Shown: one piece after another, positions 15,311 through 64,000 of the stretch
Layout of the letters: every line of letters starts with the position of its first letter
How positions within the stretch are numbered: position 1 is the first letter of the stretch
Assembly: GCA_006384855.1 (NCBI GenBank)
Contig: VCJN01001015.1
Span: forward strand, 62,001-126,000
Origin: Tetraselmis striata
Lineage: Eukaryota > Chlorophyta > Chlorodendrophyceae > Chlorodendrales > Chlorodendraceae
Direction of reading: 5' to 3'
DNA: 64,000 nucleotides
The notes under the pieces: generated by a model
What the model saw: only the letters and a program-made list of their open reading frames with translations
Told to the model about the DNA's origin: nothing
The model's database searches: none
Made by a program: the position numbers and the translations under genes

Positions 15311-15317
15311 AGCAGTA

Positions 15318-15900
15318 CTAAAATATCAACACAGCAACCCGCCTATAGGCGGCCGCATCCCGCACGAGGCGGGATGGATGAGTAATGCGCACACGATTCA
15401 GAGTCCAGGCCACGCGTGCACGTGTGTGCGAGGGTGATCCCCGGACGTGCTGTGCTGCAACCTCGGCAACGGGATGGCGGACGAATCTGCGACGTCTGAT
15501 GAGGAAGCGAGTACGCTCTCGAGCCGCCACCAAGCTCAGGACCCCGAGAAATTGTGATGCGAGTAAGGCCTCCTGGTGAGCCCGGGTGGTGCACCGAGTG
15601 CCCCGCGATTAGAGGGCATCCCGATCCGCGGCCAAGCACGCGCACAGTGCGGTGCACCCCCTTTCTCACCTCACCCATTGTGCCGAAGACCATGCCCGTG
15701 TACACCGACACATCCATGATGTCTCGAAGAGGGCGCTTCTGTGCGGGCTCAGTGTTGTGCCACGCCGCATCCCGCACTGCCAACTCCCGTTGTATGTCGC
15801 CTAACAGGGAGCGCTTAAACCGATCCACAGCCGTGGCCCGGGGCACCGCAGTGCTGTACTTGACCCCGTGCATAGTCTTCAACTCCAACAACGTGAACTT
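15318..15900 (-). pseudogene. 3' end of RT-nuclease element, cut by the duplication join
   Basis: The reverse strand matches the C-terminal ~190 codons and 3' end of the element at 46709-51308 (LLELKTM.GVKY, DRFKRSLLGDIQREL, HNTEP, YTGMVFGT.GEV). The match stops exactly at 15900/15901, the tandem-duplication junction, whereas the second unit continues into the same element. It is inactive: shifted and lacking everything upstream. Confidence 0.8.
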
Positions 15901-18686
15901 CGATTTTCCCAATTGTTTTTTGAACGTAAGCTCATTGAGGAGAGGTGCTGCACCGCAGCTTCGGATAAAATATCATATCTTCCCAGGCGGGTCGATCGCA
16001 TTTCATCCAACCTCGGACGTGCGAATCTGCAAATTAGTTGCACACTCTCCACATCTGTACATTCGTATCGTGCGTTAATGTCGATAAGAATGTAGACAGT
16101 AGGCCAGCCGCTTTTGCTTATACTCCAAATGACATCACATAATTACATGCCAAACCAGTGCAACTGCTAGAACAATACCTGAAGGTATTTGAGTCTCCGA
16201 CTGGCGGTTCCTTGCTCACTCCACCAACCACACCGGGGTTGACGCCGATGACAGCTGCAAGTGCAACATGCCACTGCTCAGAAGCGGGCAGGACGAGAGC
16301 GCTTTCAAGGCGTTTGCAAGGTCCAAGCGTCGTGTTTGGGTAGTGAACGACAAGATGCCGCTCTAGAAGAAGGGCAAGGCACTGGCGAGATGGCTTCAGC
16401 GTTCAATGACGAGTTACTTGGCTGGGGGCTCAAGCTCTCACTTGCTGCACTAGAGAAGATCAATGCCTGGCATGCTGAGCAGCTCCCGCCACGGCCGCCT
16501 TTGAAAGTGAGTCCAGGGCTCATGTACCTGCGGTACGGCACATGTGTGTGGTGGACATACGACAGCTTCGCTGAGCAAGTGGAGGCAATGATAGATTGCT
16601 ACGAGGTACTCTTCCCCGAGTTTCATCGAGGTTGCTCACAGCCAGGGCCATGCAAAGAAAAAAGGTGGGAGCGCTGTGTGTCACTGACATGACCTTGAAC
16701 TGGGGCGGCAAGAAGGATCCCATTCTTCATGGAGAAGGGTCCTTGACGAATGATTGTGTCTGCAGTCAGCCTCCTTTACCCCCCCCCCCCCTACAGTCTG
16801 ATGACAGAAACACGTAAGTGCGCTGCTCCATTGTGTTGTTGTGTTGCTGCATGTATATTGATTCGAGCAAACATGCAAAGCACAATCCTTCACATGAAAA
16901 GTGCTGACTAACGTGACACTCAATTGTATGCAAGCCCCGATGGCATTGTCACTCACCACGATTGCCGCGTCTGTGCTGTCACTGTTCAACACTTCATTTT
17001 CCCAGAGCCTCAGCGAAGTGCTCCACCATCTCCACCTCCTTGGTACCAGCCCGATGCCCCGCCATTTGACATCACCGGCACAAACTCCCTGGGCGAGGTG
17101 GTGGTGACACAGCCTGGATATGTGGGCAATAACAAGGGGATCAAGCAACTTTTGTGGGAGCGCGGTTTGTGGGAAATTGGCATATAGCTTGAGAGCGCTC
17201 TGAAGGTCTAGGTAGCCAACCTTGAAGACTTCGAGTCGGAGAAGTCTGCATTGGAGGAGCTAGTCCACAGCCGAGGGCACATTCTTGTCATGAGTCCAAA
17301 ACGTCACTCCGAGCTTGCTGGCAAGGGCGTGGAGTATGCCTTGGGAGCTGCCAAGCTGCTCTTCCGCAAGATCAATGATTGCAAGGTGAAGAATCTGCAC
17401 ATCAACACCCTTCGAGTTATGGACACCGACTACCTCACGCTTGAGAGATGCCGCAAGTTGGCAAGGAAGGCACGATACTATAGGAACGCCTACGAGTACT
17501 GTAACGTGGGGCTCGAGGAGATGGAAATGATGAATAAACACTCGAAGGCTCACCGTTGCACGATGCACCAGGACATGGGTTTCTCGATGCGCATCTTGGA
17601 CATCGACATCCCACAAACGGGCGCGGCCGCGCGGACTGCCGTCCGGAGCACCCAAGCCGCCCTCGATCGCCGAGACAACGCGGCTGAGGCACCGACGTAC
17701 AGCGGCTGGGTAGTGGGCGACTGAATGCACAGTTCTGGGCTGCCTGCACGAACTGGTGAATGCGCCATCCTGGGCTGGTTTGACCCGCCGAGCTGCGCAG
17801 CGACGCGCGCTGCGGAATTTAGTTTCCGGAATTTACATTATATCAAACAGAATTCGTATTACTGTGTTTTGCAATTAAAGCGACATCTCCGAATAATAAC
17901 CGCAAAAGGGGGTGGTCATTGCCTTTTTCTTGAGAACGAATGGGGACCAAACTCGAGAATTCCAACGGAGAAAAGTTGCCTTTGCAGGTGGGCTTTCAGG
18001 CGCAGCTTGTCCGACCGCATTATGTTAAGTATCGGCGTCAAAAAGTCTGGCACAAGCAAAAGTACATTCTTAAGTGAACCTCCCCTATAGCCTAAAAGCA
18101 GTACTAAAATATCAACACAGCAACCCGCCTATAGGCGGCCGCATCCCGCACGAGGCGGGATGGATGAGTAATGCGCACACGATTCAGAGTCCAGGCCACG
18201 CGTGCACGTGTGTGCGAGGGTGATCCCCGGACGTGCTGTGCTGCAACCTCGGCAACGGGATGGCGGACGAATCTGCGACGTCTGATGAGGAAGCGAGTAC
18301 GCTCTCGAGCCGCCACCAAGCTCAGGACCCCGAGAAATTGTGATGCGAGTAAGGCCTCCTGGTGAGCCCGGGTGGTGCACCGAGTGCCCCGCGATTAGAG
18401 GGCATCCCGATCCGCGGCCAAGCACGCGCACAGTGCGGTGCACCCCCTTTCTCACCTCACCCATTGTGCCGAAGACCATGCCCGTGTACACCGACACATC
18501 CATGATGTCTCGAAGAGGGCGCTTCTGTGCGGGCTCAGTGTTGTGCCACGCCGCATCCCGCACTGCCAACTCCCGTTGTATGTCGCCTAACAGGGAGCGC
18601 TTAAACCGATCCACAGCCGTGGCCCGGGGCACCGCAGTGCTGTACTTGACCCCGTGCATAGTCTTCAACTCCAACAACGTGAACTT
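15901..18686. repeat. tandem duplication, unit 2 (2786 bases)
   Basis: Head-to-tail copy of 13115-15900. After position 18686 the sequence goes on into older retroelement sequence (catgctccggg...), which unit 1 lacks, so the original locus is the right-hand one and the duplication joined position 18686 to 13115. No more than one base of microhomology is seen at the join. Confidence 0.9.
16261..17724 (+). pseudogene. decayed DDE-superfamily transposase, unit 2
   Basis: Identical copy of the relic at 13475-14938, with the same open segments (16261-16692, 16924-17187, 17251-17724) and the same in-frame stops. It adds no independent information except that it decayed before the duplication took place. 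Confidence 0.6.
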
Positions 18687-19345
18687 CATGCTCCGGGTAT
18701 CATAGCTCCCATTCACGACGCTGAACGCCGGGAGAGAGAGCTCTGCGTCCGGCACCATGTCTTTGAATTCATCCCTAGGTACGGTGTTGCCGAGAGGCAC
18801 GGCCTGCTGGAACTTACAAGCAATTATCCACCTCCCGGCGTACAACGATACCCATGTCGTGAACACAGTTATCGCGGAAGGCGTCTGCGATAGCGTCGTG
18901 CTGTACACGCCAGTGGACGTCTCCATGTGGCGGGAGGTTCATGAGCGCGTCGCCATATAGGTCAACAGTGAGGGGCTGTGCTCTATCGAGGGCAGAATGA
19001 TATGGGCTCCCTACCACCGGGGGTAGGCACGGGCTAGGCATCAGAAGGAAGTACCCGGCAGCGACCTCCCGAAGCTCACGCAGAGTCATGACCGTCCGCG
19101 CCGTAGGGATGGCTTCCGTCCACATGCCCGACGCCGCATCGAGCTGGTTGAACAATACCCGTTCCCTACATGTGACATGGAGAGCGCACACCTCATTCTG
19201 AAGCCGAGAGTTGTTGGCTTGGTCCAGAAATGCCGTCAGCTCCTTTGCATGCTCTACGCAGCCTCCGCCTCCCGCTCCATCACGCGGGCATTTGCGGCGC
19301 TGAGGTGGCCAGCAGGAGCCGCTTGGAGGCGGCCCCACGATTAAC
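18104..19345 (-). pseudogene. 5'-truncated RT-nuclease non-LTR element
   Basis: The reverse strand encodes the C-terminal third of the ORF seen complete at 46889-51253: KELTAFLDQANNSRLQNEV, LFNQLDAASGMW, VDLYGDALMNLPPHGD, MVPDAELSLP and LLELKTM. The PD and E-x-K residues of the nuclease-like domain are kept, but the frame is broken near 18830 and the RT is missing. It is clearly diverged from the other copies, so it is an older insertion. Confidence 0.8.
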
Positions 19346-30053: not shown

Positions 30054-30646
30054 CCCGCGCGCTTCTCGAACTCGGCGCCGATCACACCAGCCCCGGAGCG
30101 TCTCCGCCTCGCGTCGCCTAGCGCGCGACCCGCCACAAGGCTGCTGGCGCAAGGAGTTTTCCTCACAGCTGCATCCAGACCGTGTGGAATTCCTTCCGGT
30201 GTGTCGTGACCCGCGTGCCGCGGGATGGGAGAAGCGGCTGCCCTGTGGCGGGCCGGCTGCGCTGCCAGCAGTTTGGGGCGTTGCGGTGAGCTGTCAGCGG
30301 ACCCTACTGCGACAGACGACGAAACAAAACCGTTACGGTAGCGGGTATGATCTAAACTAGTTTATGGGGTTTCCATCCTTGACCTAACCGCTTTTCAGCT
30401 ACAAGTGCTGCGCAGTGGTACGGGAACTAGTAACTGTTGTTGCGCCCTTGTTGGGTGCAGCACGAGTAGACATAAAAGCAGCCAGAACAGCTGAGCCTGC
30501 CATCTTCCAGTTTTCGCTGCGTTCCACGCAGCGCTGTAAAAACTGTCTCGTAACCCGTTGCGAGCAAGGTCACCCCAGGTTGTTCAAGACCACACCCGGC
30601 TCGCCATCCGAGTGTGATATTCTCGTCCGTACGTCCGTGCGTTACT

Positions 30647-31522
30647 ATGTCAGATGGAGAAGAACCCGTCGCTGAGCCGACGTTGCAGTCACTGAACGCA
30701 GATATGAGGGCCCAGTCTTCATTACTGCGAGAGCTGGCTACAGCTGTGGCACAATTGACGGCTCGTGATCGCGTTGTTGATGGAGAAGGGGCACATGGCT
30801 CCGGCTCAGGGCAGCGCTTCGCGAGACAGCCGACAGGCAGCGGGGGAGCCGCAGAGCGCCCCGACTTGCTAGAGCTAGCCCAGAGCGGCCGTGTCGGAGC
30901 AAAATCCGTGAGTGCCGAGGATGATTACCTCGCGGTGCCAGAGCTACTGCAGAGAGCAGAGTCTGGTTACGAGGCCGTTCGACCGGTCAGCCGAGTGCCT
31001 GGACTTTTCCCTTTGAGCACCGACTTAACGAACGAGTACCTCAAGCAGGATGACCGGCGTCTGCCGGCCCAGGAGGAGTACTTGTGGATGTCGTGTTTCG
31101 GGGCCCACATGGCCGCCCTTTTCGTGGCGCTCGACGAGCTGCTACCTTACGTCCCCGCCACTAACCAGGACTTCACCCCCTACCTCGCGAGAGCCCGGAA
31201 CCACGCCGAGGCCATCGACAAGGCGTTTCGGTTTCGTCTGGCCTTCCTACGGAAGCTCAATGAGATCAAGCGTGTGCACGGTGACCAAGGTGTTCTGGAT
31301 GTGCTGCGAGCCCAGCATTTTCAGCCTGCTTCGGAGCATCTGGGTTCCGCGATCTTTGGGGACCTCATGCGGGACTACGAGCGCCGTGTCTTCGAGGCGA
31401 CCGTCGCCAGCAGCGCCAAGGCGACCGCTACTTCTCGAGTGGTGGCTGCAGCTGCAGGTCGCGGGCGTGGGCGAGGACGTGGCGGCGGACGTGGGCGTGG
31501 CCGCGAAGGTGAGCACGAGTGA
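30647..31522 (+). CDS. Gag-like ORF1 of the tyrosine-recombinase element
   Basis: The start is ATG 30647 (MSDGEEPVAEP); 291 codons. A short N-terminal coiled-coil-like part (LNADMRAQSSLLRELATAVAQL) precedes a conserved helical core (LLQRAESGYEAVRPVSRVPG to HFQPASEHLGSAIFGDLM) and a C-terminal RG-rich tail (residues ~265-290) likely to bind nucleic acid. The position and RG tail suggest a nucleocapsid or ORF1-like role; there is no zinc knuckle. Near its end, GCGAAG|GTGAGC is a consensus splice donor that could fuse it to ORF2. Confidence 0.7.
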   Translation: MSDGEEPVAEPTLQSLNADMRAQSSLLRELATAVAQLTARDRVVDGEGAHGSGSGQRFARQPTGSGGAAERPDLLELAQSGRVGAKSVSAEDDYLAVPELLQRAESGYEAVRPVSRVPGLFPLSTDLTNEYLKQDDRRLPAQEEYLWMSCFGAHMAALFVALDELLPYVPATNQDFTPYLARARNHAEAIDKAFRFRLAFLRKLNEIKRVHGDQGVLDVLRAQHFQPASEHLGSAIFGDLMRDYERRVFEATVASSAKATATSRVVAAAAGRGRGRGRGGGRGRGREGEHE

Positions 31523-31634
31523 CGGTGTGGGGCGCCGTTCGTCGGAGCTGCAGGAGCCTTGCGAGGCCACCTTTCGGTGACCGCCGCAAGACGCACCCTT
31601 GCAGCTCAACGGCGGGATGAGCGCCCTGTGTCAG

Positions 31635-33184
31635 GACCTGACCCCCCCACCTTACAGACTTCACTCAGACCTTCCTCGGTGCGGCGCTTCTTACAGCTAC
31701 AGCCGAGTGCGGCTCAACCATCCGCACACCTGCACATGGCGGCTCAACCATCCGCCTTTCTTACAACCCCATCTCTGCGTTCGTCGGTTGTTACACTACG
31801 AGTTACAACCGGTTCGCAACGACCAAGTTTCGCGCGTGTACGTTACGCACGGGACAGGCGCTATGAGCGCGAAGGGCGCGCGGGGCGGCCCGCCTACCTG
31901 AACCTAGCCCCGCAAACCCGTACTGAAGCTACTGCAAACCCGTCCAGCAACTACCGGCCAACCGCCGGGAACCTAACCGCTGCTGCCGAGTACTTTGCGA
32001 ACAGTAGCCGTGCCGGTGGCACTCTGTCAGAAAAACGACGCACTTACGTAATCGACGAGCCCGCAGCTGTCGCTCCGTGGGCTGCGTCACTGCGATCCCG
32101 ACTACAGGACGCGTTCGGCTCAGACGAGCTAGGCCAGCGGACGCTCGACTTGCTCTCCAGCTCCCTTAGCGCTCAGACCCTCAAGAGCTACGCCGGCAGG
32201 TTGGCTCAGTTCGCTGAGTTCTGCCACGACTCCGAGAACATCAGCCCGCTAGAGGCGACTACTGCTACTGTTGTTCGGTACGTTGCTTGGATCGGGGAGC
32301 GAGGGCATATCGCAGCTAAGTCGCTACAGCCCTATCTGTCTGCCATCAACACCTTCTTCGAGCTGCACAACCTCGTCCCGATCGCCAAGGACAGCCTACA
32401 CCTCACTTCGGCAAGACGTGGGTTAATGTTACGTCAGCGTCGACTGGACGCTGCCCCTTTGCGTGTCCCTCTGCCTGCGGATGTAGCTTACCGCTTCGTC
32501 TCGAAGGCCGAGCTAATTGTGTCTGCTCCTTACCCAGAGTCCCACCTCGACTACCGAGCCCTCTTGGCCTCGGTTGTCAACTTCCTGTTCTTTGCCAGGG
32601 GCCTTACTGGCGTCTCCTGTCGAGTGCAAGATGTGCATGTCGACACCTACAACATCACCTTGCAGATCTACCGCGAGAAGGGTCGCGCCGGCCGGCGGGG
32701 ACCTGACGACCTGCGCGTACTTCTCCTTCCAGTGTCCGAGCACCCTCGAGTGGCACGTCTCTTGCGCTACTTCATCGACAACGTCCAGTCTGTCCCCCTG
32801 GTTACTGTTGGCTTGGCTACCTCCAACTTCTGGGCTGTCAATGTGGCTGAGCAGTCGAAACCTTGGACTGCTACTACGATGTCAGACTGGTTGTCCACAG
32901 CAGTCAACCTAGTCAACGCTGCCCCCCCTGCTGGCACTTCCTGGACTTCACACAGTCTACGCAAGGGCGCAGCCTCTGCAGCAAACGCCATTGGAGCGCC
33001 ACTGTCCCACATCCGCTACCAGGGCGGTTGGGCCACTAACTCTGATGTCGTTCTGGACTACATCGACCCCAACGTTCTTCCTTCTCCTGGGGCGTGGTTC
33101 TTCTTTGGACACATCGCCCCCCTCCGCCACTTCCAAGTCCAACAGGACTCCGCAGCGGTGGCCTTCCCAGTGCCTCCTTCATGA
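31635..33184 (+). CDS. tyrosine recombinase (integrase-type), ORF2
   Basis: Open to the TGA at 33184. The first in-frame ATG is 31736, but I favour entry by splicing from ORF1 (donor 31509, acceptor ending 31634, phase-compatible). A SAM-like N-domain (LSAQTLKSYAGRLAQFAEFC, ISPLEATTATVVRYVAWIGERGHIAAKSLQPYLSAI) is followed by the catalytic domain: a first Arg probably in FFARGLTGVSCR, the box H-S-L-R-K-G (SHSLRKGAASAANAIGAPLSHI), then GGWATNSDVVLDYID with the nucleophile Tyr. It probably integrates circular element DNA. The frame is intact here and frameshifted in the copy at 55899-57525. Confidence 0.85.
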
Positions 33185-33568
33185 CTTGGCGCTACCCCTT
33201 CTCCGTCAATCCACCGCTCTCTCCGTTCGCTCAAGACTGGCAAAACCAGACTCAACTTTGAAATGATCTAAACTAGTTTATGGGGTTTCCATCCTTGACC
33301 TAACCGCTTTTCAGCTACAAGTGCTGCGCAGTGGTACGGGAACTAGTAACTGTTGTTGCGCCCTTGTTGGGTGCAGCACGAGTAGACATAAAAGCAGCCA
33401 GAACAGCTGAGCCTGCCATCTTCCAGTTTTCGCTGCGTTCCACGCAGCGCCCCCCCTGACTCCGTTTTCCCTCCACGCTTTTCGCTAAACCTTCCTGCCA
33501 ATTTCGGCTCTTGACCGTGTAAAACAGCCTGCGCGACCTTTTTGGCAAAACCAGACTCAACTTTGAAA

Positions 33569-43814: not shown

Positions 43815-46475
43815 CTAGGGAGCCTGCCCTGGTAGCAGTGGCTCGCCATCGTTCTCCTGCACTGTCGCGATCACCGCGAGGCTATGCTGGATCTCCCTGG
43901 GATCGCTGTCGTAGAACTCTGCGCTGGGCTCTGGCTCGGGGCTCTTGGGGCCCTGCGCGATGGCCAGCCCATGACCTGGGGTAGACACATATTTGAGGTC
44001 TACCCATGCTGCGCGTGCCGCCTGGACACTGAACGACATGCTGGCGTGGACAGGCATGTCACTCGTCCTCCGTGGCGGGACACTGGACACCTGCAGCGGC
44101 GTGGAGGAGGCGCTTCCGTTCAGAGACAGGTTGATGGCTGAGCTGGTCCTTCGCATGTTTGAGCGGCGTGGGCGGGGATGCTCTGCTGAAATATCCATGT
44201 GGGACAGAGCCTCCGTCGTCAAGACCCCCTCGCAGTGGTCCTCGGCAAACGTCCCCATCATGGAGTGGTCCATCACTGAGTGGGATCTGTGCAGCGACGC
44301 GCCCTCAGACGATCTCCTTTGATCGAGCCTGCGTTTGATCGAAACGGCACCTTTTGAGGCCAGGGTCGCCCTGGTGGCAGTTTTGAGGGACAGATGCTGC
44401 TCCAGCAGGTGCCCCTTGAGCTCCTGGAGGTCCTCCCCGCTGGCGCGGCCCAGCACGAGTACCAGCTGGATCAGCTCGCCTTGCCCCTCCACAGGCGCCC
44501 GCGTCACGAGGGGCAGCAGCGCGCGGATTTTGTCCGCTGGCGTGTGGCAGCGCAGCTTGCCGGACAGCTTGCAGTACTTCGCAAGTGCCGCTTTGGCCAC
44601 CGCAGGCTCGAAGGGCGTCTCGCGAAGCCATAGCGGCATGACCTTAGCTCCAGCCATCTGCATGCGCTCCCGTAGCTCCTCCATCTCTTGCCCTTCCTCG
44701 CCCGACACCGCCATGCCCAGGCCGTGCTCCATGGCATCGCCAATATCCCGTGGCTGGGTCACCACGTTTAGTTTTCGCGCGATGCAGAACTCCTGGCAGG
44801 TCCACACTCGCTCGTGATACCGCGACCCCGGCGCCTCCAGGCTGCGCAGCGCCAGAGTCGCCTTGGCTGAGGCGTACACTGCCATCATGCGCGCCAGCAG
44901 CGTGTACTTCAGCTCGCACTCATGCTGCGGCACTGAGAGCCGGTCCAGCCACACATAACGGCAGCGCTGCTCCTTGATGGCCACCGCCAGCGCCTTCAGC
45001 TGAAAGGTGCTCATGTTGAGCATGCAGTCGTGGCTGATGCACATCTCCACCGTCTGCCAGCGGTAACTCACTGCCATTGTCTCCTCCATCCGTTCCGCCG
45101 TCGCCTTATAGCGTGGCAGCCGCGCTGTGTAAGGCCGCCCATCAATCGTGGCCAGCAGTGAGGCATGCAGTGCTGATGCCTTCACCACCAGCCCAAAGCC
45201 TGGGCTGGCATGCAGGTGGTCGAAGCTGGACTCCTTGTCGCGGAGCAGCACTATCAGGACAGCCAGCGTGGCGCGCCCGGCGTACACTACCACGCACAGC
45301 CCAATGGGCACGCCGCTGGCGACGCGGTAGCACATGACGAGCGCAAACACCATGATCAGGAGCTCCTGGCGGTGGCCCGTGCTCGACTCCTTCAGGACCC
45401 TGATGGCCGCGGGGATAGTCGCGGACGCCTGGCTCCCGTCGACACTCACGGTCGAACTGAAGCGGCGCGCTATGCTCGGCCGCGACACCGCCCGACGGGC
45501 CTGGCGGAAAAAGTGCCCCGCAGAGACGCCCAGAAACGCAGCCATGTCCTGCACGAGCATGCTGTTCCACACGAAGTAGAGGTGGAACAAAAAGCTGACG
45601 ACCTCGATGACGAACAGGGCGGCGACGTCCGGCCCGGAGTCGGTGCTGTTGGGCACGTCGCGCATCTCGCGGTGCACGTTCTGGTACAATACGATAACAA
45701 AAGAGATGAGCACCAAGTAAGGCGCACGCTTCAGACGGTGAAGCAGCGGGTTCCCCTTTTGCCGAAGCGCCGTCGTCATCGCGTCGCCCCAAAGGACGGT
45801 CGGCGTGGTGACAAAGTGGACGGAGGCGGCGCCCCACATTTGCAGGACCGCGCGTTCGATCATTTCGTTCCAGCGCTTGCCCATGTAGCAGAGCTGACTA
45901 GTGCCGCATATTAGCTCAAATAGCGGCGACCTGTTGTGCTGCAGGCCCACCACCAAGTAGGTGGCAACCAGGCATATCGTCACTGGGACGGTGGTAATGC
46001 CGAGCAGGATGTTGCCGGCGCGCAGCGAGTTCAGACTCTCCTGGTAGAGGTCCGGGCTGGCCGCGCACACCCAGCTGCAGTCGCCACGGCTCTCCGAACG
46101 CCCCGTGCAGCAGCAGCCGCCCTTGGTCGACCTGGAAAACCGGAGAACTGTCGCCGCCTTTACGATGAGCTGTATTGCGGCGGCCCCGAGGCACACTAAA
46201 TATCCCAGCAGCCGGATCGTCAGAATGAGCTCGTACTCCTCCACGCACAGCCCCGCCGCCTGCGAGGCGAGGCTGCCCACCTCGAAGAAGGGGCAGGGCG
46301 CGCTCAAGCAGATGCACACATCGATGACATAAATCAGGAAGAGCTGCCCAACAATCACGGACAGTGTCGTTCGGAGCTGCGGCGCGCGCAGGTACTGCAG
46401 GAACCACTGCTGTTCGGTGGCGAGGCGGTGGTGCACGCCGGAGCGCCGTCGGCGGAGGTGCGCCGCGTCAACCAT
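43815..46475 (-). CDS. multi-pass membrane protein with HET (TIR-like) domain
   Basis: One uninterrupted 886-codon frame from ATG 46475 to TAG 43815, unlike its intron-rich neighbours. Hydrophobic segments at about residues 36-58, 83-108, 155-178, 251-267, 284-306 and 371-411 suggest six or seven membrane passes. A cytoplasmic-looking region follows: residues ~467-570 read MAVSYRWQT..., YVWLDRLSVPQHE, MMAVYASAKATLAL and RVWTCQEFCIARKL, the order of motifs in heterokaryon-incompatibility (HET) domains, which are structurally related to TIR. Residues ~690-886 are polar, Ser/Arg-rich and probably disordered. HET domains in fungi trigger non-self death responses; the role in algae is unknown, and signalling at a membrane is inference. 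The non-LTR element lies about 230 bases upstream. Confidence 0.75.
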   Translation of the reverse strand: MVDAAHLRRRRSGVHHRLATEQQWFLQYLRAPQLRTTLSVIVGQLFLIYVIDVCICLSAPCPFFEVGSLASQAAGLCVEEYELILTIRLLGYLVCLGAAAIQLIVKAATVLRFSRSTKGGCCCTGRSESRGDCSWVCAASPDLYQESLNSLRAGNILLGITTVPVTICLVATYLVVGLQHNRSPLFELICGTSQLCYMGKRWNEMIERAVLQMWGAASVHFVTTPTVLWGDAMTTALRQKGNPLLHRLKRAPYLVLISFVIVLYQNVHREMRDVPNSTDSGPDVAALFVIEVVSFLFHLYFVWNSMLVQDMAAFLGVSAGHFFRQARRAVSRPSIARRFSSTVSVDGSQASATIPAAIRVLKESSTGHRQELLIMVFALVMCYRVASGVPIGLCVVVYAGRATLAVLIVLLRDKESSFDHLHASPGFGLVVKASALHASLLATIDGRPYTARLPRYKATAERMEETMAVSYRWQTVEMCISHDCMLNMSTFQLKALAVAIKEQRCRYVWLDRLSVPQHECELKYTLLARMMAVYASAKATLALRSLEAPGSRYHERVWTCQEFCIARKLNVVTQPRDIGDAMEHGLGMAVSGEEGQEMEELRERMQMAGAKVMPLWLRETPFEPAVAKAALAKYCKLSGKLRCHTPADKIRALLPLVTRAPVEGQGELIQLVLVLGRASGEDLQELKGHLLEQHLSLKTATRATLASKGAVSIKRRLDQRRSSEGASLHRSHSVMDHSMMGTFAEDHCEGVLTTEALSHMDISAEHPRPRRSNMRRTSSAINLSLNGSASSTPLQVSSVPPRRTSDMPVHASMSFSVQAARAAWVDLKYVSTPGHGLAIAQGPKSPEPEPSAEFYDSDPREIQHSLAVIATVQENDGEPLLPGQAP

Positions 46476-46694
46476 CCCACCCGCCTCCCGAAACGTTTAT
46501 GGTTCGAGGGCAAGAGCATTAGCATTGACATTCCCCTACTGAACGTGCTGTTGGTTAAGCTGGGCGTTCAGTGCAAAGTAGTGGGGGTGGCCTTGTCGGT
46601 GGGACGCTCCCGGGGCGAAGCATTTATAGCCCGCGGGAAATATACGTACCCGCGAGAGCCCGCGAGAACAGTACCAGTATCAGTACGGGTACCT

Positions 46695-46708
46695 ACCAGA
46701 ACAGTACC
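46695..46708 (+). repeat. left target-site duplication of the non-LTR element
   Basis: accagaacagtacc here and, identically, at 51309-51322. Everything between them behaves as one insertion. Confidence 0.8.
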
Positions 46709-49700
46709 GGGTTTGCGATTCCCCACCGGCCCCACCCACCCAGCGGCCCCGGAGGCGCTGCGGGGCCGTGTGTCGCCATGCCTCACCCGCCGCCCAGATC
46801 GCGTAGCTGCCCTCAACCCCCTCCCACGCGACGTCACCGTTCTGCCCGGGCTGTGGCGGGTCGCTTGTATCCGGCGGGGCGCCGCGCGATGTCTGCGCCT
46901 TCCGCCGATGGTGCGGCAGAACGCGCCGTTGACCCCGGGTCGCCGCCGCCCCCCAGTACATCGTCCAGTATATCAGGCAGCCCCGGCGCATCGCGTGCGG
47001 CGGGAGCGTCGCCCGCGGCAACACCGCCCACCGCCAGTGCACCCGACGCCACCCAGCCAAGGCCGAGCCCGCCCGCGACTGCCGTCCCGCCGGCTCCCAC
47101 GTACGCCCAGGCGGTGAGCCGGTCGTCGAGTCCCGAGTCCGCGACGGGCGCGGCAGGTACGACCGGCGCGCGCGCTGCCTCGCCTGTGTCGTCGCCGGCC
47201 CGCAGTACTTTCAGCAGTATTTCGGGGCCCGGCGCGTCACAGCGCGATCACGATGGCGCTCCGACCGGCCAGGAAGTCTCCGAGCGGCCCCAGCCGCGGC
47301 CGCGCGGCGGCAACAGCGGCATAGCGCTCACCGGCCTCGATGCTCTCGCCCGCCTGCATTCCAGGCTACACGACAGCGGGCCGGCGCGGCGGGGCGTAGC
47401 ACCGGCAGCGGCTTGGACAGTCGCCGACGCGCTTTCCGTCGCTGGCGTTGCCGCGGGCGCCGCGTGGGCGCCGAGGATTGACGCCGCAGCCAGGTCGCTC
47501 CAGCCCGCCCGCGTCAGGCACCACCCGGCCGATGTGCTGGCTTTCACCGAGGTCGCCGCCGCGTGGCTAGCCAAGGCGCGCGCCGTGTTGGCCGAGCGGC
47601 ACCGCCGTCGGGGGGCGCGCCGCGCCGGTGGAGCTGGACAATCGTCGGTGCTGCCGTCGCCCGCACTGCCGTCCGTCGCTGCGTTCCGGGGCGTCGCAGC
47701 GCCCCCGGTTGTTGCCCCCACGCCGCCAGAGGTGGGTGCACCGGCCGGCCACCCCGGTAGCGAGGCCTCACGGGCTCGGTATCCGCCCCCCCCTACTCGC
47801 CCATCTCCAGCCGGCGACGGAGTGGGGTGGGGTGCGGTGGACCACCTCTCCGACGTGGACATGGTGCACATGCCGGCGGAGATGTCCATGGAGACGGCGG
47901 TGCCGATTGACTTTCAAGAAGCGTGGGCAGAGGCACAACGCTGCGTGAATGAGCGGGTGGTGGCGGCGATGGAGGCCAATGACCCCGTGGTGTTGGATAG
48001 GGCGCTTAAGTGGAAGTACCTGTTGCCACAATTGTTGCTTAGGGCCCCGAGCCGAGGCGGACGGCGGCGGCTGCAAGCCTTGGCGTGGCGCTTCCGCGCT
48101 TTCGCGGAGAGGCGCATGACCGAACTCGTGCGCTCATGGGACGACGCGCGCACTGACGCGTTCTACGCCGGACATGCCCGCCAGCGTCGGACGGACGCCG
48201 ATCTCTTTGCGGCGCTGCTCGTGGGCACCGCGGACACCGTTGTGGCGTTGGTGGAGGACGGAGAGCTCTCCCGAGCGGCGGGCCGACTATCTTCTAAGGG
48301 TATGGGCGACTTGTCCGATCCTGCTATCCTCGCCCAGCTGCGCGACAAGCACCCGTCCCGTAGCCACCCGATCCCAGACGCCGCGTATGTCATTCCGGTG
48401 GACGAGGCCGCCCTGACGGTGGACATGCGCGTGCCGTACCAGCAACTCAAGCAGCACGTGGCGGCGGGGCCCTCAGGCATGCGCAACGAGTATCTCCGCT
48501 GCTTGGTGGGCGAATACGCCCCGGCGTCCGGGCCCGCGGCAGTCCGCGCCATGTCGGAGGTTGCCTCCATGTACCTCCAAGGCCGCCTGCCCGGGTGGTT
48601 CAACCGGCTCTTCGCCTCTGCTAGGCTCGTGGCACCTGTCAAGAAGCTAGGCGAGGGGAGGGCCCCGGACGTGCGGCCTGTGGCAGTCGGGGAGGCGGAG
48701 CGGCGCGCAGCGGAGCGTGCAGTGGTTGACAACATGAAGGAGGCATACGTGTCGGTGCTCGCTCCATCTCAGCTCGGCGTTGGCATTCCCGCGGGCGACT
48801 CTGTGCTCATCCACGGCGTCCGGCTCATCGCCGAGAAGCTTGGCCCACGTGCCGTCATCGTCCACACAGACCTTCGCAACGCTTACAACGAGGCATGGCG
48901 CCGCACCATCATCCAGCGCCACATCGATTGCTCTCCACTACACCCTGTCATCCCTGCGCTTCTAGCCTCCCTCTCCACGGACTCGTATCTGGTCGTGGAC
49001 GACCGGTCCGCCCCTCTGCGGTCGGAGGACGGCGTGCAACAGGGCGCACCTTTGGCCACGACTTCCTTTTGCGTCGCGATTCACCCCGAGGTGCAGCAGT
49101 GTGATACCACGTTGGAGGTCAATGACGGGGCGGCGCGCTTCAACGCCGACGATGGATTTTTGGTGGGCCTTCCGGAGCACGTTTGGCCGGCTCTTCACGC
49201 CTTCCGCACGTCCATCAAGGCGTCCGTGGGGCTTGAGGTGCGCTTCGACAAGATGCAGGCGTACAGCGCAGACATGGAGGCGGCGCGGCGTGAGGCTCCG
49301 GCCGACATCGAGTGGCCAGAGCTAGATGGCCATCACGGCATCGCGGTCCTCAACGTGCCGCTCGGATCGCCAGAGTATGTGCAGGCGTACATGCGCGGCA
49401 AGGCGGAGGAGCTACGAGAGGAGGTGGACGCTAGCCTGAGCAAGCTTCTGTCTGCCAAGCCCAGCCGTCGGTACACCCACGCCTTGCATCACCACGCATG
49501 GGCCCTGCTCAAGCATTGCATGCAACACAAGGCGGGGTATTGGCTCCGCAATTGTCTTCCGTCCGAGGTGGAGGCCTTTGCGGAGGCGGTGGATGCCACC
49601 ATCCTCGCGGCGGTCGAACGGGTGCTAGGGGTCTCTTTTGATCCCTCCACGTACGGCACCGACACCAATCCGGTGGTCACCGATTTCTTGGCGGAGCTTT

Positions 49701-51308: not shown

Positions 51309-51322
51309 ACCAGAACAGTACC

Positions 51323-54695: not shown

Positions 54696-55006
54696 GTCGC
54701 TATGATCTAAACTAGTTTATGGGGTTTCCATCCTTGACCTAACCGCCTTTTAGCTACAAGTGCTGCTCAGTGGTACGGGAACTAGTAACTGTTGTTGCGC
54801 CCTTTTTGGGTGCAGCACGAGTAGACATAAAATTAAAGCAGCCAGAACAGCTGAGCCTGCCATCTTCCAGTTTTCGCTGCGTTCCACGCAGCGATGTAAA
54901 AACTGTCTCGTAACCCGTTGCGAGCAAGGTCACCCCAGGTTGTTCAAGACCACACCCGGCTCGCCATCCGAGTGTGATATTCTCGTCCGTACGTCCGTGC
55001 GTTACT

Positions 55007-55862
55007 ATGTCAGATGGAGAAGAACCCGTCGTTGAGCCGACGCTCAAGTCGTTGCAAGCAGATGTGCGTGCATTGGCTACAGCTGTGGCACAATTGACGG
55101 CTCGTGATCGCGTTGTTGATGAAGAAGGGGCACATGGCTCCGGCTCAGGGCAGCGCTTCGCGGGACAGCCGACAGGCAGCGGGGGAGCCGCAGAGCGCCC
55201 CGACTTGCTAGAGCTAGCCCAGAGCGGCCGTGTCGGAGCAAAATCCGTGAGTGCCGAGGATGATTACCTCGCGGTGCCAGAGCTACTGCAGAGAGCAGAG
55301 TCTGGTTACGAGGCCGTTCGACCGGTCAGCCGAGTGCCTGGACTTTTCCCTTTGAGCACCGACCTAACGAACGAGTACCTCAAGCAGGATGACCGGCGTC
55401 TGCCGGCCCAGGAGGAGTACTTGTGGATGTCGTGTTTCGGGGCCCACATGGCCGCCCTTTTCGTGGCGCTCGATCGAGCTACTGCCCTACGTCCCTTCCA
55501 CCAACCAGGACTTCACCCCCTACCTCGCGAGAGCTCGGAACCACGCCGAGGCCATCGACAAGGCGTTTCGGTTTCGTTTGGCCTTCCTGCGGAGGCTAAA
55601 TGAGATCAAGCGTGTGCATGGTGACCAAGGTGTTCTGGATGTGCTGCGAGCCCAGCATTTTCAGCCCTCTTCGGAGCATCTGGGTTCCGCGATCTTTGGG
55701 GATCTCATGCGGGACTACGAGCGTCGTGTCTTCGAGGCGACCATTGCCAGCAGCGCCAAGGCGACCGCTACTTCTCGAGTGGCGGCTGCAGCTGCAGGTC
55801 GCGGGCGCGGGCGAGGACGTGGCGGCGGACGTGGACGTGGCCGCGAAGGTGAGCACGAGTGA
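55007..55862 (+). pseudogene. Gag-like ORF1, frameshifted copy
   Basis: Begins MSDGEEPVVEP and is about 90% identical to ORF1 of copy 1, with a short deletion after residue ~20. A one-base insertion near 55472 (ctcgaTcgagc) shifts the frame, and the C-terminal half continues in another frame through the RG-rich tail to 55862. The splice-donor-like GAAG|GTGAGC is conserved. Confidence 0.8.
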
Positions 55863-55974
55863 CGGTGTGGGGCGCCTTTCGTCGGAGCTGCAGGAGCCTT
55901 GCGAGGCCACCTTTCGGTGACCGCCGCAAGACGCACCCTTGCAGCTCAACGGCGGGATGAGCGCCCTGTGTCAG

Positions 55975-57525
55975 GACCTGACCCCCCCACCTTACAGACT
56001 TCATTTAGACCTTCCTCGGTGCGGCGCTTCCTACAGCTACAACCGAGTGCGGCTCAACCATCCGCACACCTGCACATGGCGGCTCAACCATCCGCCTTTC
56101 TTACAACCCCATCTCCGCGTTCGTCGGTTGTTACACTACGTGTTACAACCGGTTCGCAACGACCAAGTTTCGCGCGTGTACGTTACGCACGTGACAGGCG
56201 CTATGAGCGCGAAGGGCGCGCGGGGCGGCCCTCTTACCTGAACCTAGCCCCGCAAACCCGTACTGGAGCTACTGCAAACCCGTCCAGCAACTACCGGCCA
56301 ACCGCCGGGAACCTAACTGTTGCTGCCGAGTACTTTGCGAACAGTAGCCGTGTCGGTGGAACTCTGTCAGTAAAACGACGCACTTACGTAATTGACGAGC
56401 CCGCAGCTATCGCTCCGTGGGCTGCGTCACTGCGATCTCGACTGCAGGACGCGTTCGGCTCAGACGAGCTAGGCCAGCGGACGCTCGACCTGCTCTCCAG
56501 CTCCCTCAGCGCTCAGACCCTCAAGAGCTACGCCGGCAGGTTGTCTCAGTTCGCTGAGTTCTGCCACGACTCCGAGAACATCAGCCCGCTGGAAGCGACT
56601 ACTGCTACTGTTGTTCGGTACGTTGCCTGGATCGGGGAGCGAGGGCACATCGCAGCTAAGTCGCTGCAGCCCTACCTGTCTGCCATCAACACCTTCTTCG
56701 AGCTGCACAACCTCGTTCCGATCGCCAAGGACAGCCTACACCTCACCTCGGCACGACGTGGGTTAATGTTGCGTCAGCGCCGACTGGACGCTGCCCCTTT
56801 ACGTGTCCCTCTGCCTGCGGATGTGGCTTACCGCTTCGTCTCAAAGGCCGAGCTAATTGTGTCTGCTCCTTACCCAGAGTCCCACCTCGACTACCGAGCC
56901 CTCTTGGCCTCGGTTGTCAACTTCCTGTTCTTTGCCAGGGGCCTTACTGGCGTCTCCTGTCGAGTGCAAGATGTGCATGTCGACACCTACAACATCACCT
57001 TGCAGATCTACCGCGAGAAGGGTCGCGCTGGCCGGCGGGGACCCGACGACCTGCGCGTACTTCTCCTTCCAGTGTCCGAGCACCCTCGAGTGGCACGTCT
57101 CTTGCGCTACTTCATCGACAACGTCCAGTCTGTCCCCCATGGTTACTGTTGGCTTGGCTGCCTCCAACTTCTGGGCTGTCAATGTGGCTGAGCAGTCAAA
57201 ACCTTGGACTGCGGCTACGATGTCAGACTGGTTGTCCACAGCAGTCAACCTAGTCAACGCTGCCCCCCCTGCTGGCACTTCCTGGACTTCACACAGTCTA
57301 CGCAAGGGCGCAGCCTCTGCAGCAAACGCCATCGGAGCGCCACTGTCCCACATCCGCTACCAGGGCGGTTGGGCCACTAACTCTGATGTCGTTCTGGACT
57401 ACATCGACCCCAACGTTCTTCCTTCTCCTGGCGCGTGGTTCTTCTTTGGACACATCGCCCCCCTCCGCCACTTCCAAGTCCAACAGGACTCCGCAGCGGT
57501 GGCCTTCCCAGTGCCTCCTTCATGA
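55975..57525 (+). pseudogene. tyrosine recombinase, frameshifted copy
   Basis: Equivalent to 31635-33184. A one-base insertion near 57139 (cccccAtgg) moves the final ~130 codons, including HSLRKG and the Tyr nucleophile region, into another frame. Both parts are otherwise well conserved with copy 1, so the loss is recent. Confidence 0.85.
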
Positions 57526-58105
57526 CTTGGCGCTACCCCTTCTCCGTCAATCCGCCGCTCTCTACGTTCGCTCAAGACTGGCAAAACCAGACTCAACTTT
57601 GAAATGATCTAAACTAGTTTATGGGGTTTCCATCCTTGACCTAACCGCCTTTTAGCTACAAGTGCTGCTCAGTGGTACGGGAACTAGTAACTGTTGTTGC
57701 GCCCTTTTTGGGTGCAGCACGAGTAGACATAAAAGCAGCCAGAACAGCTGAGCCTGCCATCTTCCAGTTTTCGCTGCGTTCCACGCAGCGCCCCCCCTGA
57801 CTCCGTTTTCCCTCCACGCTTTCGCTAAACCATCCTGCCAATTTCGGCTCTTGACCGTGTAAAACACCCTGCGTGACCTTTTTGGCAAAACCAGACTCAA
57901 CTTTGAAACCCTGTTGCGCTAGTGAACATTCTGATACGCCACGCGCCAGATGATGCGTACGAGTACCAGTACTAGTAGGTACTACATCAGATGGGGGGTC
58001 GTTACTACGGGCGGTATTAATTGTTAATAATTATGATTGTACTACAGGTATAAATAATAGGGATATGCTGATTTTATGTTTTACTGCAGGAATGATGGGA
58101 TAATA

Positions 58106-59096: not shown

Positions 59097-59320
59097 AATC
59101 TAGCCCTAATAGAGATTGTTATAACACTAATCATATCATACTATATGTGAATAATTATTTATTCATACAGGCAGACGGGCGGCACAGGCGTAGTAGGCTA
59201 ACAATTTACTAATAAGCTCTGGAGAACACGCGGAAAGTACTGGCGACTACAGGTGCCTGTACTGCTGAGTAAGGAAAAATCTGATTACAATAGCCAGCGG
59301 CGCTACCAGTACTTTCCGGT

Positions 59321-61207: not shown

Positions 61208-61660
61208 ACCTGTACTACCGTACTGGGCGGTTACTGAAGAACTTGGTAAGAATGAATGCATACTAAGGCCGGTCCGATTTAGTGTTATGGTTTAGTACTC
61301 TACTATTCGTTACTAAGTACTTAACTGAGTTTAGTCAGACGACGGACCGAGTTGTGCGGTCAAACGACTACCACCTGGAAAATATAGCACAATAGCTAGT
61401 CATCGGCTCTGTCTATAATCTTCCAGGATGGGACAGTGAGCAGCGGACTCGCGACCGCACCAACTCGTGACATGTTTCCCTGCCTACCTGTAGCTACTAC
61501 TTAGCAAACTGTCTAGACCATAGCGCTCATCCCTTTTGCTGTTGCGCTTCACGCCCCAGCAATCGCGCGGCACCTGTGCCGCGAGGGGAAGCGATCCTTG
61601 TCGATATTTTTCCGCCTGCGCTAGCACGACGCCCTGCGCGCGGCATTGTCAGGGCTCAGT
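61208..61660. other. spacer before the DIRS-type element
   Basis: Holds the diverged 39-base match (61265-61303) to the right end of the element at 58106-59096. The later part is probably the left repeat and leader of the DIRS-type element, but its partner repeat lies outside the window, so no boundary can be set. Confidence 0.4.
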
Positions 61661-62826
61661 ATGCCTGACAACTCCGGTGACGCCCCTAGTGGCCTAGCCG
61701 AAGACCGCATCGCCGCGCTGGGGGCCGGTTTCGCGGGGCTTACGGAGCTTTTGGAAGCCCTACGAAGTGACCTTCAGCGGCCTAGTGGTTCTACTTCTAC
61801 CGAGCCATGCGCGCCCGTAGTAGCGCTGCCGCGGCGAGCTCCCAGCACGACGCACCGGCTCGCGCAGAGCAGGTTCCCGTGCCCCAGCCCCACCGCGGTG
61901 GTCCTAGTGCCGCTGCCCCTTCCTTAGTCTGGGAGGAGTGGGCTCATTTAATTGGCCCTGGCTTTTCCGTCCAGCCCAGCCCCGGCCTCTCTCCGATTCT
62001 CCAGTTGTACGACATCTCATCTGACGAGACGCACCGCCAGCTCATCGCGCGTCGGCACTGGGCCACTTTGGATCAGTACCGCTCTCTATACAGCTTTGGC
62101 TTCTACAATGCGGTGGCCCACGCGGCTCTCTGCGAGGCGCTCGCGTCGATTAAGAGAGCGGCAAGCGCGGCGCAGCCCCGTGATGAGGAGGACCCTCGCC
62201 TCCTTGAAGCGGGCGTGGCGGCCTACGACGTCTCAAATAAACACCGGCGCGACTTCCTGGCGTTTATCCGCCTCAACGCGTCGAAGGATGCGGATGCGCT
62301 GACCAAGACAGTCGCACATGTGGTTCGCCGCAGCCTCCTCAAGCCCGGTTTCGCGGACTATGGTTCGGAAGCGGTGGCGCAGCTCAGCGACGAGCTTTTG
62401 CGCCGCGAGGCCGAGTACAACGTCACGGCGGCGGCAAAGGCAGCCGTACAACAACGCTTCGGCATGGGACCAGACCCCATTGCAACGATGAAGAGGACAA
62501 CGACGACGAGCGACCATCCAGAGCGCGACGGCGCCGGCCCTCCGGACGCCGCCCACGCCCAGACTTCCGCCCCACAGCCGACGACGCCGACAAGGGCAAG
62601 GGCAAGGGCAAGACCTGACGGTGCGGCCCGCCGTTCCGCTTTGTTACCACGCCCCTCCACGTTTCTGCGCCATCGCATGCGGCAGAACGGGCGGGAGTGC
62701 CGGCGAATCGGAGCGAGCGGGCGCGTGCTCCGGTGGGTTCGCGAGGGAGTGCCGCTGCCTTTCACTGGCGCGGCGCCCATGCCTTTCCATCGGGGCGTCT
62801 CTCTACAGGACGCTACGCCTCAGTAG
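61661..62826 (+). pseudogene. Gag-like ORF of a DIRS/PAT-type element
   Basis: ATG 61661 opens MPDNSGDAPSGLAEDRIAALGAG; after ~45 codons the homologous-looking frame continues shifted, from about 61807 to TAG 62824. A helical core (QLYDISSDETHRQLIARRHWATLDQYRSLYSFGFYNAVAHAAL) resembles in layout ORF1 of the tyrosine-recombinase element. The frame then runs towards the RT (HRMRQNGRECRRIGASGRVLRWVREGVPLPF). The frame change and TAG mark it as decayed. Confidence 0.55.
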
Positions 62827-64000
62827 CTCGAGTGGTGGGAGCGAAAGAGCCATCGACTAGTAACAGTCGGCGCGCTTGAACCTAGCGTGCGCGAGCACTA
62901 CGTGTCGCGAGTCTTCCTAGTACCAAAGCCGGGATGCAACCAGTGGCACCTTGTAATAGACCTGCGCCATCTGAGCTCTTACTGCGCGGTCTATTCCATG
63001 CGATTCGAAACTCAGCGTCGCTTGCGATACCTGGCGAAACGCGGCGACTAGGCGTTTACCTTCGACCTGCAAAACGGGTACTACGCCCTGGGCTTGCGGG
63101 AGGACGTCCGCGACTACTTTACAATCAACGTACGTGGCACCCTGTGGCGCTTCGCGGCCCTCCCCATGGGTTGGTCGCTAAATTCTTACTACTTCTGCAC
63201 TATGATGGCGGTCATGGTGCGCTACCTGCGTCAACCAGACTTCGCGACCTACAGCATCTACGGCCGGCCCTTCCGTCGACGCTTGCGCGTCGCCGCAAGG
63301 CGCGCAGCGTTTGCCTCCTACCGTTCATCGACGACTTCCTGTTTGTGGCACCTTCGCGCCAGCTGGCTCTACGCCTACGGGCCGAGGTCGAGTGAGTATG
63401 GGGGCGCCTGGGCATGGCCAAGCACCCCACCCTGGCCCACCCCGAGCTCACCCAGCAGCTGCAGTACCTAGACATGGACTTGGACCTGGTCACTATGCAG
63501 TTCCGCGCCCCAACGGCGAAACGGCGTCGGCTCTCCAACCTGGCCCGCGACCTCGTGTGCATCGCTGCGCGCCGCCGCCGCCACGCGCCGGCCAGACTGC
63601 TTGCGTCTCTCGCCGGGCAGGGCTAGTTCCTCTACCTCGCGATGCCTCCGGCGCGTTTCTACCTCTGCGAGGCGCACACCGTCCTAGGCCGATGCTCCTC
63701 TCCGAGTGGCAAGGTCGTTCTGACGCGTCAGCTGATTCGCGATTTGGAGTGGTGGCGCTATGTTCCACAACGGCGCACCGATTCTGCGCCCGGTGGAGAC
63801 AGCCTATCTGCACACGGACTCCAGCCAGTACGGCTAGGGTGCGGTACTGTGCGAAACTACAGAGGCACGCGGATATTGGTACGAGGAGGATTGTCGACGT
63901 CATATAACGTACAAGGAGCTCAAAGCGGTACGTCTCTCCATACAGTCATTTTTGCCACGGCTGATGGGGCGCCGCGTACTTTTGTACGAGGACAATCAGG
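62827..64000 (+). pseudogene. DIRS/PAT-type reverse transcriptase and RNase H, decayed, runs off the window
   Basis: Reads HYVSRVFLVPKPGCNQWHLV, then FTFDLQNGYYALGL (motif A), LPMGWSLNSYYFC (motif B), and after a frame change near 63250 LLPFIDDFLFV (motif C, I-D-D). Next come QYLDMDLDL...FRAPTAKRRRL, the RT connection, and YLHTDSSQYG, ITYKELKAV and LLYEDNQ, the three acidic positions of RNase H. The I-D-D motif C and downstream order are typical of DIRS-like, not Gypsy or Copia, elements. In-frame stops: TAG 63049, TGA 63393, TAG 63624, TAG 63835. The recombinase expected downstream lies outside the window. Confidence 0.75.

What the first reader, a model, noticed from the sequence alone, without database searches (positions are those of the whole stretch)
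30348..33568. Tyrosine-recombinase element with PAT-style split repeats but no reverse transcriptase
The sequence shows A1 (187) - Gag-like ORF - tyrosine recombinase - B1A2B2. In described PAT/DIRS/Ngaro elements this repeat layout goes with RT and RNase H; Cryptons have the recombinase but no such repeats. Two copies with the same content, one with all frames open, argue against a random internal deletion. A1 and A2 agree within each copy but differ between copies, so repeats are still copied from one template. Either an RT is supplied in trans (a DIRS-type RT lies at 62.8-64 kb), or this is a circular-DNA recombinase element that uses the repeats differently.
Basis: partly seen in the sequence, partly recalled or inferred. 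Interest (0 to 1): 0.75.

Follow-up and report, generated by a model that had tools for sequence, protein, structure and literature searches.

The report
Retrotransposon family without reverse transcriptase
A green alga's genome holds more than a thousand copies, whole or partial, of a jumping gene that keeps the coat-like gene, the recombinase and the special end repeats of a known retrotransposon group but has no reverse transcriptase, so it probably borrows that enzyme from relatives in the same genome.

Summary
Window 30347-33568 is A1 - Gag-like ORF - tyrosine recombinase (YR) - B1A2B2 with no RT/RNase H; a second copy lies at 54702-57908. It is not a one-off deletion. The 224-Mb genome holds 1,197 B1A2 junctions of this type. 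In 20 sampled loci none shows pol; 15 are complete 3.2-kb elements. Gag and YR evolve under purifying selection (pN/pS 0.25 and 0.21; wrong-frame control 1.2). A1 and A2 are homogenised within copies. Two exact empty sites show insertion without target duplication or loss. The genome also carries RT-bearing PAT/TOC3-like families with this repeat layout and distantly related YRs (about 35-50% identical). Best reading: an old pol-less PAT lineage that keeps Gag, YR and cis-repeats and takes RT/RNase H in trans. A DNA-only mode is not excluded but fits the repeats poorly. In this family and in one RT-bearing family YR follows Gag in the same frame after UGA CGG (a leaky stop context); in the latter that frame stays open for 676 codons across pol, suggesting Gag-YR readthrough. 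New variant of a known kind.

The parts
30347..30534 (+). A1 split direct repeat, left end of copy 1; holds a TATA-like CATAAAAG at 30471-30478, so the transcript probably starts inside A1
   Evidence: 100% identical to A2; promoter position is inference from sequence
30647..31522 (+). ORF1, Gag-like, 291 aa from its ATG, arginine-glycine-rich C-terminus, one cysteine only, so no CCHC zinc finger; ends TGA at 31520-31522
   Evidence: purifying selection; weak similarity to Gag of RT-bearing PAT L033 (tblastn E 6.6e-5) and collinear weak hhalign match to L030 Gag (E 0.0015, probability 6.7)
31520..31540 (+). UGA CGG stop context and block TGACGGTGTGGGGCGCCGTTC, similar to the block after Gag in RT-bearing PAT families; possible stop-codon readthrough signal
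   Evidence: TGACGG kept in 19 of 19 copies
31523..32050 (+). linker in the same frame as Gag and YR, first Met at codon 72; stands where RT-RNase H-MT overlaps the YR frame in the RT-bearing relative
   Evidence: pN/pS about 0.41; first Met; no pol similarity
32051..33184 (+). tyrosine recombinase domain, catalytic residues present by alignment
   Evidence: pN/pS 0.21
33238..33263 (+). B1 repeat
   Evidence: similar to the B repeat of the RT-bearing PAT L030 (12 of 20,000 shuffles score as well)
33263..33450 (+). A2 repeat; B1A2 is the internal copy of the circle junction
   Evidence: 1,197 such junctions genome-wide
33518..33522 (+). TGTAA, the chlorophyte polyadenylation signal, 20 nt before B2
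   Evidence: sequence; UGUAA signal from PMC1868727 abstract
33543..33568 (+). B2 repeat, right end of copy 1
54702..57908 (+). copy 2, 96.2% identical, gag and YR frames broken (B1 57579-57604, A2 57604-57791, B2 57883-57908)
61303..64000 (+). left part of an RT-bearing PAT element (A1, gag, RT) that ends about 2.2 kb beyond the window; candidate type of RT donor, this copy broken

Best explanation
The element is a pol-less member of the PAT (TOC3-like) lineage of tyrosine-recombinase retrotransposons in a Chlamydomonas-like green alga. It is transcribed from inside A1 to a TGTAA signal just before B2, so the RNA lacks both element ends (inferred). Its own Gag packages the RNA (inferred); reverse transcriptase and RNase H come in trans from RT-bearing PAT families in the same genome (inferred); B1A2 in the RNA serves as template to restore the missing A and B ends, so that A1/A2 and B1/B2 are renewed from one template (homogenisation of A1/A2 shown, mechanism inferred). 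The circular DNA with a joined B2-A1 junction (inferred) is inserted by the element's own YR (inferred) at a short T-N/Y site without duplication or loss of target (shown at two sites). Gag and YR lie in one frame separated only by UGA CGG, so YR is probably made by stop-codon readthrough of Gag (inferred). Because pol in the RT-bearing relative is an overlapping frame, it could be lost without breaking the Gag-YR frame.
For: High copy number without RT: 1,197 B1A2 junctions and 1,340 post-Gag blocks at up to 3 mismatches, 0 in the reversed-pattern controls; pol found in 0 of 20 sampled loci; 19 of 21 exact post-Gag blocks on contigs up to C435 have an exact B1A2 1,732-1,802 bp downstream, leaving no room for pol. 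The RT-less state is old and selected: complete RT-less copies range down to 85.6% identity with copy 1, pN/pS 0.25 (gag) and 0.21 (YR) against 1.2 for the wrong frame; all 78 YR matches listed (the best of 7,722 candidates, so a favourable sample) have open frames. Template renewal: A1-A2 distance 0.012 within against 0.031 between copies, 0 of 20,000 random pairings as close. RNA ends fit the repeats: TATA-like box in A, TGTAA 20 nt before B2, and 16 nt before B2 in L030. Precise integration: array in C764 where elements sit exactly at A position 17/18 and a copy in an L030-type PAT, with L030 and L031 as empty sites; 17 of 17 right flanks start with T or C, 15 of 17 left flanks have T at -2. 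RT source: L030 has an 897-aa open frame with RVT_1 (E 1.4e-12, above cut-off) and RNase H and Dam-type MT matches below their cut-offs.
Against: No RNA, circle or protein data, and use of RT in trans is not shown. The donor is not identified: the YRs of the RT-bearing elements examined are only about 35-50% identical to this one by stretch (L030 41-42%, L031 37-43%, L029 34-52%, second type 37-39%) and Gag is barely alignable. A closer RT-bearing sibling among PAT families that I could not read (for example the abundant third class) is not excluded. Most copies are dead: both long frames are open in 4 of 17 complete copies (W1, L010, L022, L023). In 4 of 17 copies A2 of another copy is nearer to A1 than its own, and ectopic gene conversion could also homogenise A1 and A2. 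Tandem units of 2,915-2,916 bp can arise by unequal crossing-over between A repeats. The sample of 20 was drawn from exact junction matches, so older copies are under-represented.
Confidence: 0.7

Rival explanations
1. DNA-only YR element: the recombinase excises or copies a DNA circle and reinserts it; the A/B repeats are recombination sites and no RT is used.
For: No RT in the element; YR intact by alignment; head-to-tail arrays of 2,915-2,916 and 3,203 bp units; insertion without target duplication.
Against: 1,197 B1A2 junctions against 1,230 B1 contexts leave little room for A...B copies lacking A2B2, which integration of a unit circle would leave. A1/A2 renewal over deep divergence needs an added gene-conversion step. 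Gag would have no obvious role, yet it is conserved. TATA-like and TGTAA positions fit RNA ends.
Confidence: 0.12
2. Passive deletion derivatives of one RT-bearing family that share its repeats; Gag and YR are leftovers.
For: The layout is that of the RT-bearing PATs minus about 1.6 kb of pol; a truncated non-autonomous derivative, SIRE from VIPER, is known (PMC6681497, passages); most RT-less copies have a broken frame.
Against: Purifying selection on both genes among RT-less copies; no RT-bearing copy with these repeats in 20 sampled loci or by the proximity check on 98 loci; among the 91 rows that showed sequence (of 263 matches), none joined the RT-less block TGACGGTGTGGGG to a pol start.
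Confidence: 0.13
3. Crypton-like DNA transposon that captured a gag and end repeats.
For: YR without RT.
Against: Its YR is 42% identical to that of a PAT with pol, at least as near as two RT-bearing PATs are to each other over a shorter stretch (35-37%); the B repeat, the post-Gag block and the layout match PAT. No Crypton sequence was compared.
Confidence: 0.02

Closest known systems
TOC3-like PAT elements of green algae (PAT superfamily, DIRS order)
   Same: Split direct repeats A1/B1/A2/B2, YR not inverted, Gag without zinc finger (description read in PMC4157794, section 7); no target-site duplication (YR elements in general, same paper, passages).
   Different: No RT, RNase H or MT; 3.2 kb against 4.9 kb for the RT-bearing PAT of this genome; copy number far above the low numbers stated for YR elements in that section.
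L030/L031-type RT-bearing PAT of the same genome
   Same: Same layout; TGTAA between A2 and B2; similar B repeat; Gag-UGA CGG-YR in one frame; YR 42% identical over the recombinase.
   Different: Carries pol in the +1 frame overlapping 676 codons of the YR frame; no DNA similarity found in A; Gag nearly unalignable.
VIPER/SIRE of trypanosomatids
   Same: Split-repeat YR element with a short non-autonomous partner (PMC6681497, passages).
   Different: SIRE corresponds to the A2-B2 region; here Gag and YR are kept and selected.
TR-GAG LTR elements and Chlamydomonas TOC1 (both recalled, not read)
   Same: Non-autonomous retroelements; TR-GAG keeps only gag.
   Different: TR-GAG elements are LTR elements without a recombinase; I could not read what TOC1 encodes.
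Cryptons
   Same: Encode a YR and no RT.

Membership tests
PAT (TOC3-like) retrotransposon, DIRS order | A1 - ORFs - B1A2B2 split direct repeats | tested here: met
PAT (TOC3-like) retrotransposon, DIRS order | tyrosine recombinase, same strand, upstream of internal repeats | tested here: met
PAT (TOC3-like) retrotransposon, DIRS order | Gag without zinc finger | tested here: met
   ORF1 from its ATG has one cysteine; that it is a Gag rests on weak similarity to PAT Gag and position
PAT (TOC3-like) retrotransposon, DIRS order | reverse transcriptase and RNase H | tested here: not met
   no pol match in any of 20 sampled loci
PAT (TOC3-like) retrotransposon, DIRS order | MT domain | tested here: not met
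   Pfam on both ORFs against a sub-threshold Dam match in L030 pol
PAT (TOC3-like) retrotransposon, DIRS order | insertion without target-site duplication | tested here: met
   two exact empty sites
PAT (TOC3-like) retrotransposon, DIRS order | RNA intermediate and circular DNA | not testable with these tools
   indirect signs only
Crypton DNA transposon | YR as the only gene, no split repeats | tested here: not met
   gag-like gene under selection and split repeats present
Ngaro / VIPER | RT-RNase H present, MT absent, split repeats | tested here: not met
   no RT; the nearest relative examined carries a weak MT match
Stop-codon readthrough gene fusion (Gag-YR) | leaky stop with an in-frame open extension under coding selection | tested here: inconclusive
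   UGA CGG in 19 of 19 copies, linker pN/pS 0.41; L030 frame open over 676 codons, 0 of 5,000 shuffles; but one related PAT copy, L033, ends Gag with TAA

The most novel reading that the evidence does not exclude
A retrotransposon lineage has given up reverse transcription altogether: the Gag-YR element multiplies as DNA circles made and inserted by its own recombinase, with Gag and the split repeats reused for that purpose, and has grown to more than a thousand copies.
Probability: 0.1. Interest if true: 0.9.

Novelty: new variant of a known kind. Interest (0 to 1): 0.6.

Why it matters
As far as I know (recall), non-autonomous retroelements usually lose their genes or keep gag alone; this one keeps the packaging gene and the integration gene and sheds only pol, and it seems to outnumber its RT-bearing kin several-fold (1,197 junctions at up to 3 mismatches against 283 matches to one RT motif at up to 1 mismatch; the two tolerances differ). 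It separates the steps of YR retrotransposition into cis and trans, so the question of which proteins must come from the same element, open for the DIRS order as far as I know, becomes testable in an alga. If the Gag-UGA-YR frame is really read through, it also gives a way in which a recombinase can be made in low amount from an overlapping-gene retroelement.

Tried and rejected
Composite element (RT-less unit plus a downstream RT unit): in L032 and L033 an RT-bearing PAT starts about 0.5 kb downstream of an RT-less 3' end. Rejected: the spacers differ in length (about 454 and 512 bp) and are unrelated, and L034 has no RT-less match. RT-bearing sibling at C231 (RT motif 5.6 kb upstream of a B1A2): it is an RT-less element nested in a PAT copy. 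Long gap at C29 between the post-Gag block and B1A2: the copy is continuous through gag and most of YR and loses similarity at element position 2805, so pol is not between Gag and YR. Frame-preserving indels as proof of a translated linker: inconclusive, because dead copies carry many random indels. The third-frame control used the RT frame by mistake; it was redone. A hairpin in the post-Gag block is weak evidence: the predicted folds of the two families differ, and in RT-bearing families the same bases code for pol. One search failed because a paper term was too short; one search replaced it. A Rubisco search gave a large-subunit gene whose best solved match is 1gk8, by recall Chlamydomonas; a first call used wrong coordinates. 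No DNA similarity beyond chance between L030 and the RT-less element was found outside YR by BLAST; the B repeat likeness needs a shuffle test to show.
Full report
Observation. Copy 1 spans 30347-33568: A1 30347-30534, Gag-like frame 30554-31522 (ATG at 30647), YR frame 31523-33184, B1 33238-33263, A2 33263-33450, B2 33543-33568; A1=A2 (188 nt) and B1=B2 (26 nt) are exact. Copy 2 at 54702-57908 is 96.2% identical with broken frames. YR has a Phage_int_SAM match and a sub-threshold Phage_integrase match, and a weak Cre match covers the H-x-x-R, W and Y region. No pol similarity beyond chance in the element.

Genome context. The window is contig C806:62001-126000 of a 224-Mb, 2,903-contig assembly. 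A Rubisco large-subunit frame on another contig has 1gk8 as its best solved relative (by recall a Chlamydomonas structure), so I treat the host as a green alga. The exact organism is unknown to me.

Copy number and content. The B1A2 junction pattern occurs 1,197 times at up to 3 mismatches, the block after the Gag stop 1,340 times, the B1 context 1,230 times, each with 0 in the reversed control. The post-Gag pattern alone would not exclude pol behind it; the spacing test below does so for a part. At 3.2 kb each, 1,197 copies would be about 3.8 Mb or 1.7% of the assembly (arithmetic; an upper estimate, since some are truncated). I fetched 20 of the 100 exact B1A2 places listed, spread along the list: 15 are complete RT-less elements, 1 is a tandem array with 2,915-bp units (L026), and 4 (L009, L011, L013, L028) are 5'-incomplete, replaced or broken. 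A tblastn with pol of two RT-bearing families finds nothing at E 0.001 in any of the 20. Of 21 exact post-Gag blocks on contigs up to C435, 19 have an exact B1A2 1,732-1,802 bp downstream; C308:88033 has none in the exact list but has an exact B1 context 1,702 bp downstream; C29 has one 10,353 bp away because that copy loses similarity inside YR.

Selection. Among 19 copies (17 complete, 2 partial) summed pairwise pN/pS is 0.25 for gag, 0.41 for the linker before the first Met of ORF2, 0.40 for the rest of the linker, 0.21 for YR, and 1.2 when the YR is read one base off. Synonymous differences between the most distant complete copy (L024) and copy 1 reach 0.37 in YR. The RT-less form has therefore passed through many rounds of copying with both genes needed. 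Dead copies are included and pull the ratios up: both long frames are open in only 4 of the 17 complete copies (W1, L010, L022, L023).

Repeats. In 17 complete copies the mean A1-A2 distance is 0.012 within and 0.031 between copies; the summed own-pair distance is 59 against 129.5 for random pairing, 0 of 20,000 as low. Own A2 is nearest, ties included, in 13 of 17; L010, L015, L016 and L022 are exceptions. This is what end renewal from one template gives; gene conversion is an alternative. A TATA-like box lies in A, and TGTAA, the chlorophyte poly(A) signal (PMC1868727, abstract), lies 20 nt before B2 in copy 1 and 16 nt before B2 in L030. The parts missing from such an RNA are those that B1A2 repeats. 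These transcript ends are inferred.

Integration. In C764 three head-to-tail elements sit at one site inside a resident A1: the leftmost 17 nt of A, then a complete element, then B2 followed directly by A from position 18, twice over. In L040 an RT-less element interrupts an L030-type PAT; L030 and L031 hold the uninterrupted sequence, with no base duplicated or lost. In 17 insertions the right flank begins with T (11) or C (6), and the base at -2 of the left flank is T in 15. This fits YR recombination at a short core, as in the DIRS1 model, which uses a 3-bp junction and no target duplication (PMC3266345, passages).

RT-bearing relatives. L029, which begins in the window at 61303, is a complete but frame-broken PAT with gag, RT, RNase H and YR. 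L030 and L031 are 99.1% identical PATs of about 4.9 kb with the same A1...B1A2B2 layout; L031's YR frame is broken. L030 has RVT_1 above the cut-off and RNase H and Dam-type MT matches below theirs in one 897-aa frame. A second RT type (FDLQDGFY; L032-L034) has its own Gag, and L033 and L034 show YR remains. One RT motif gives 283 matches at up to 1 mismatch. YR identities: RT-less to L030 42% over the recombinase, to L029 34% and 52% over two stretches, to the second type 37-39% over the N-terminal part; L030 to the second type 35-37% over a similar part. The RT-less lineage is thus about as far from each RT-bearing family as those are from each other. Its B repeat resembles that of L030 (12 of 20,000 shuffles). 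I did not find a closer RT-bearing sibling.

Frame arrangement. In the RT-less family and in L030, Gag ends with TGA CGG and the YR frame follows in the same frame without any other stop. In L030 this frame runs 676 codons over RT-RNase H-MT, which are read in the +1 frame: 0 stops observed against a mean of 15.4 (minimum 6) in 5,000 synonymous-codon shuffles; the remaining frame has 18 observed against 24 expected; L031 agrees over the overlap but is not independent. Long pol/YR overlap is known in the DIRS order (PMC3266345, passages). What I add is the shared Gag frame and the leaky stop: UGA CGG and UGA CUA are listed among typical leaky contexts (PMC11166343, passages). The L030 YR frame has no Met before codon 358 and the RT-less one none before codon 72, so an internal AUG start would not need the upstream part open. 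Against: L033 has TAA at the same place; in RT-bearing families the conserved block also codes for pol; the 263 matches required TGACGG by design; and nothing here measures translation. I give readthrough about 0.5.

Print search. Seven full-text searches, five of them on YR elements or TOC/Kangaroo, listed no paper that by its title or the start of its abstract describes a split-repeat YR element with gag and YR but no RT. I saw passages or one section of PMC4157794, PMC3266345, PMC6681497, PMC8547959, PMC8226300, PMC5753468 and PMC11166343, and the abstract of PMC1868727, only. The primary TOC1, TOC3, Kangaroo and PAT papers did not appear in these listings.

Verdict. A pol-less, Gag+YR-bearing PAT lineage that most likely borrows RT in trans: a new variant of a known kind.

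Noticed in passing
L030:2655-5849 (overlap 2655-4683); L031:1313-3748: YR frame stays open for 676 codons across the pol frame, starting right after Gag's UGA CGG, against about 15 stops expected from synonymous shuffles.
   Followed up: partly
   Followed up: no
L035/L036 (C764:24000-37600): Three RT-less elements stacked head to tail by repeated insertion at A position 17/18; a hot target inside the element's own end.
   Followed up: yes
L032 about 598-1052; L033 about 953-1465: RT-bearing PAT copies begin about 0.5 kb downstream of RT-less 3' ends at two loci with unrelated spacers; possible clustering of insertions.
   Followed up: partly
window 13115-15901 and 15901-18687: Perfect 2,787-bp tandem duplication, 100% identical; real recent duplication or assembly artefact.
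   Followed up: no
RT-less copies aligned to 30347-33568: Many insertions seen in a single copy are exactly 4 bp long, a possible signature of break repair in this alga.
   Followed up: no
window 599-3580 and 5991-9053: Exons of a dynein heavy chain gene (Pfam AAA_7, AAA_8, Dynein_C).
   Followed up: no
window 43815-46496 (-) and 46559-51253 (+): A frame with a HET (heterokaryon incompatibility) domain match, E 1.7e-6, beside a 1,564-aa frame with a sub-threshold RVT_1 match, perhaps a LINE-like element; 49426-51311 is repeated at 59318-61210 at 96%.
   Followed up: no
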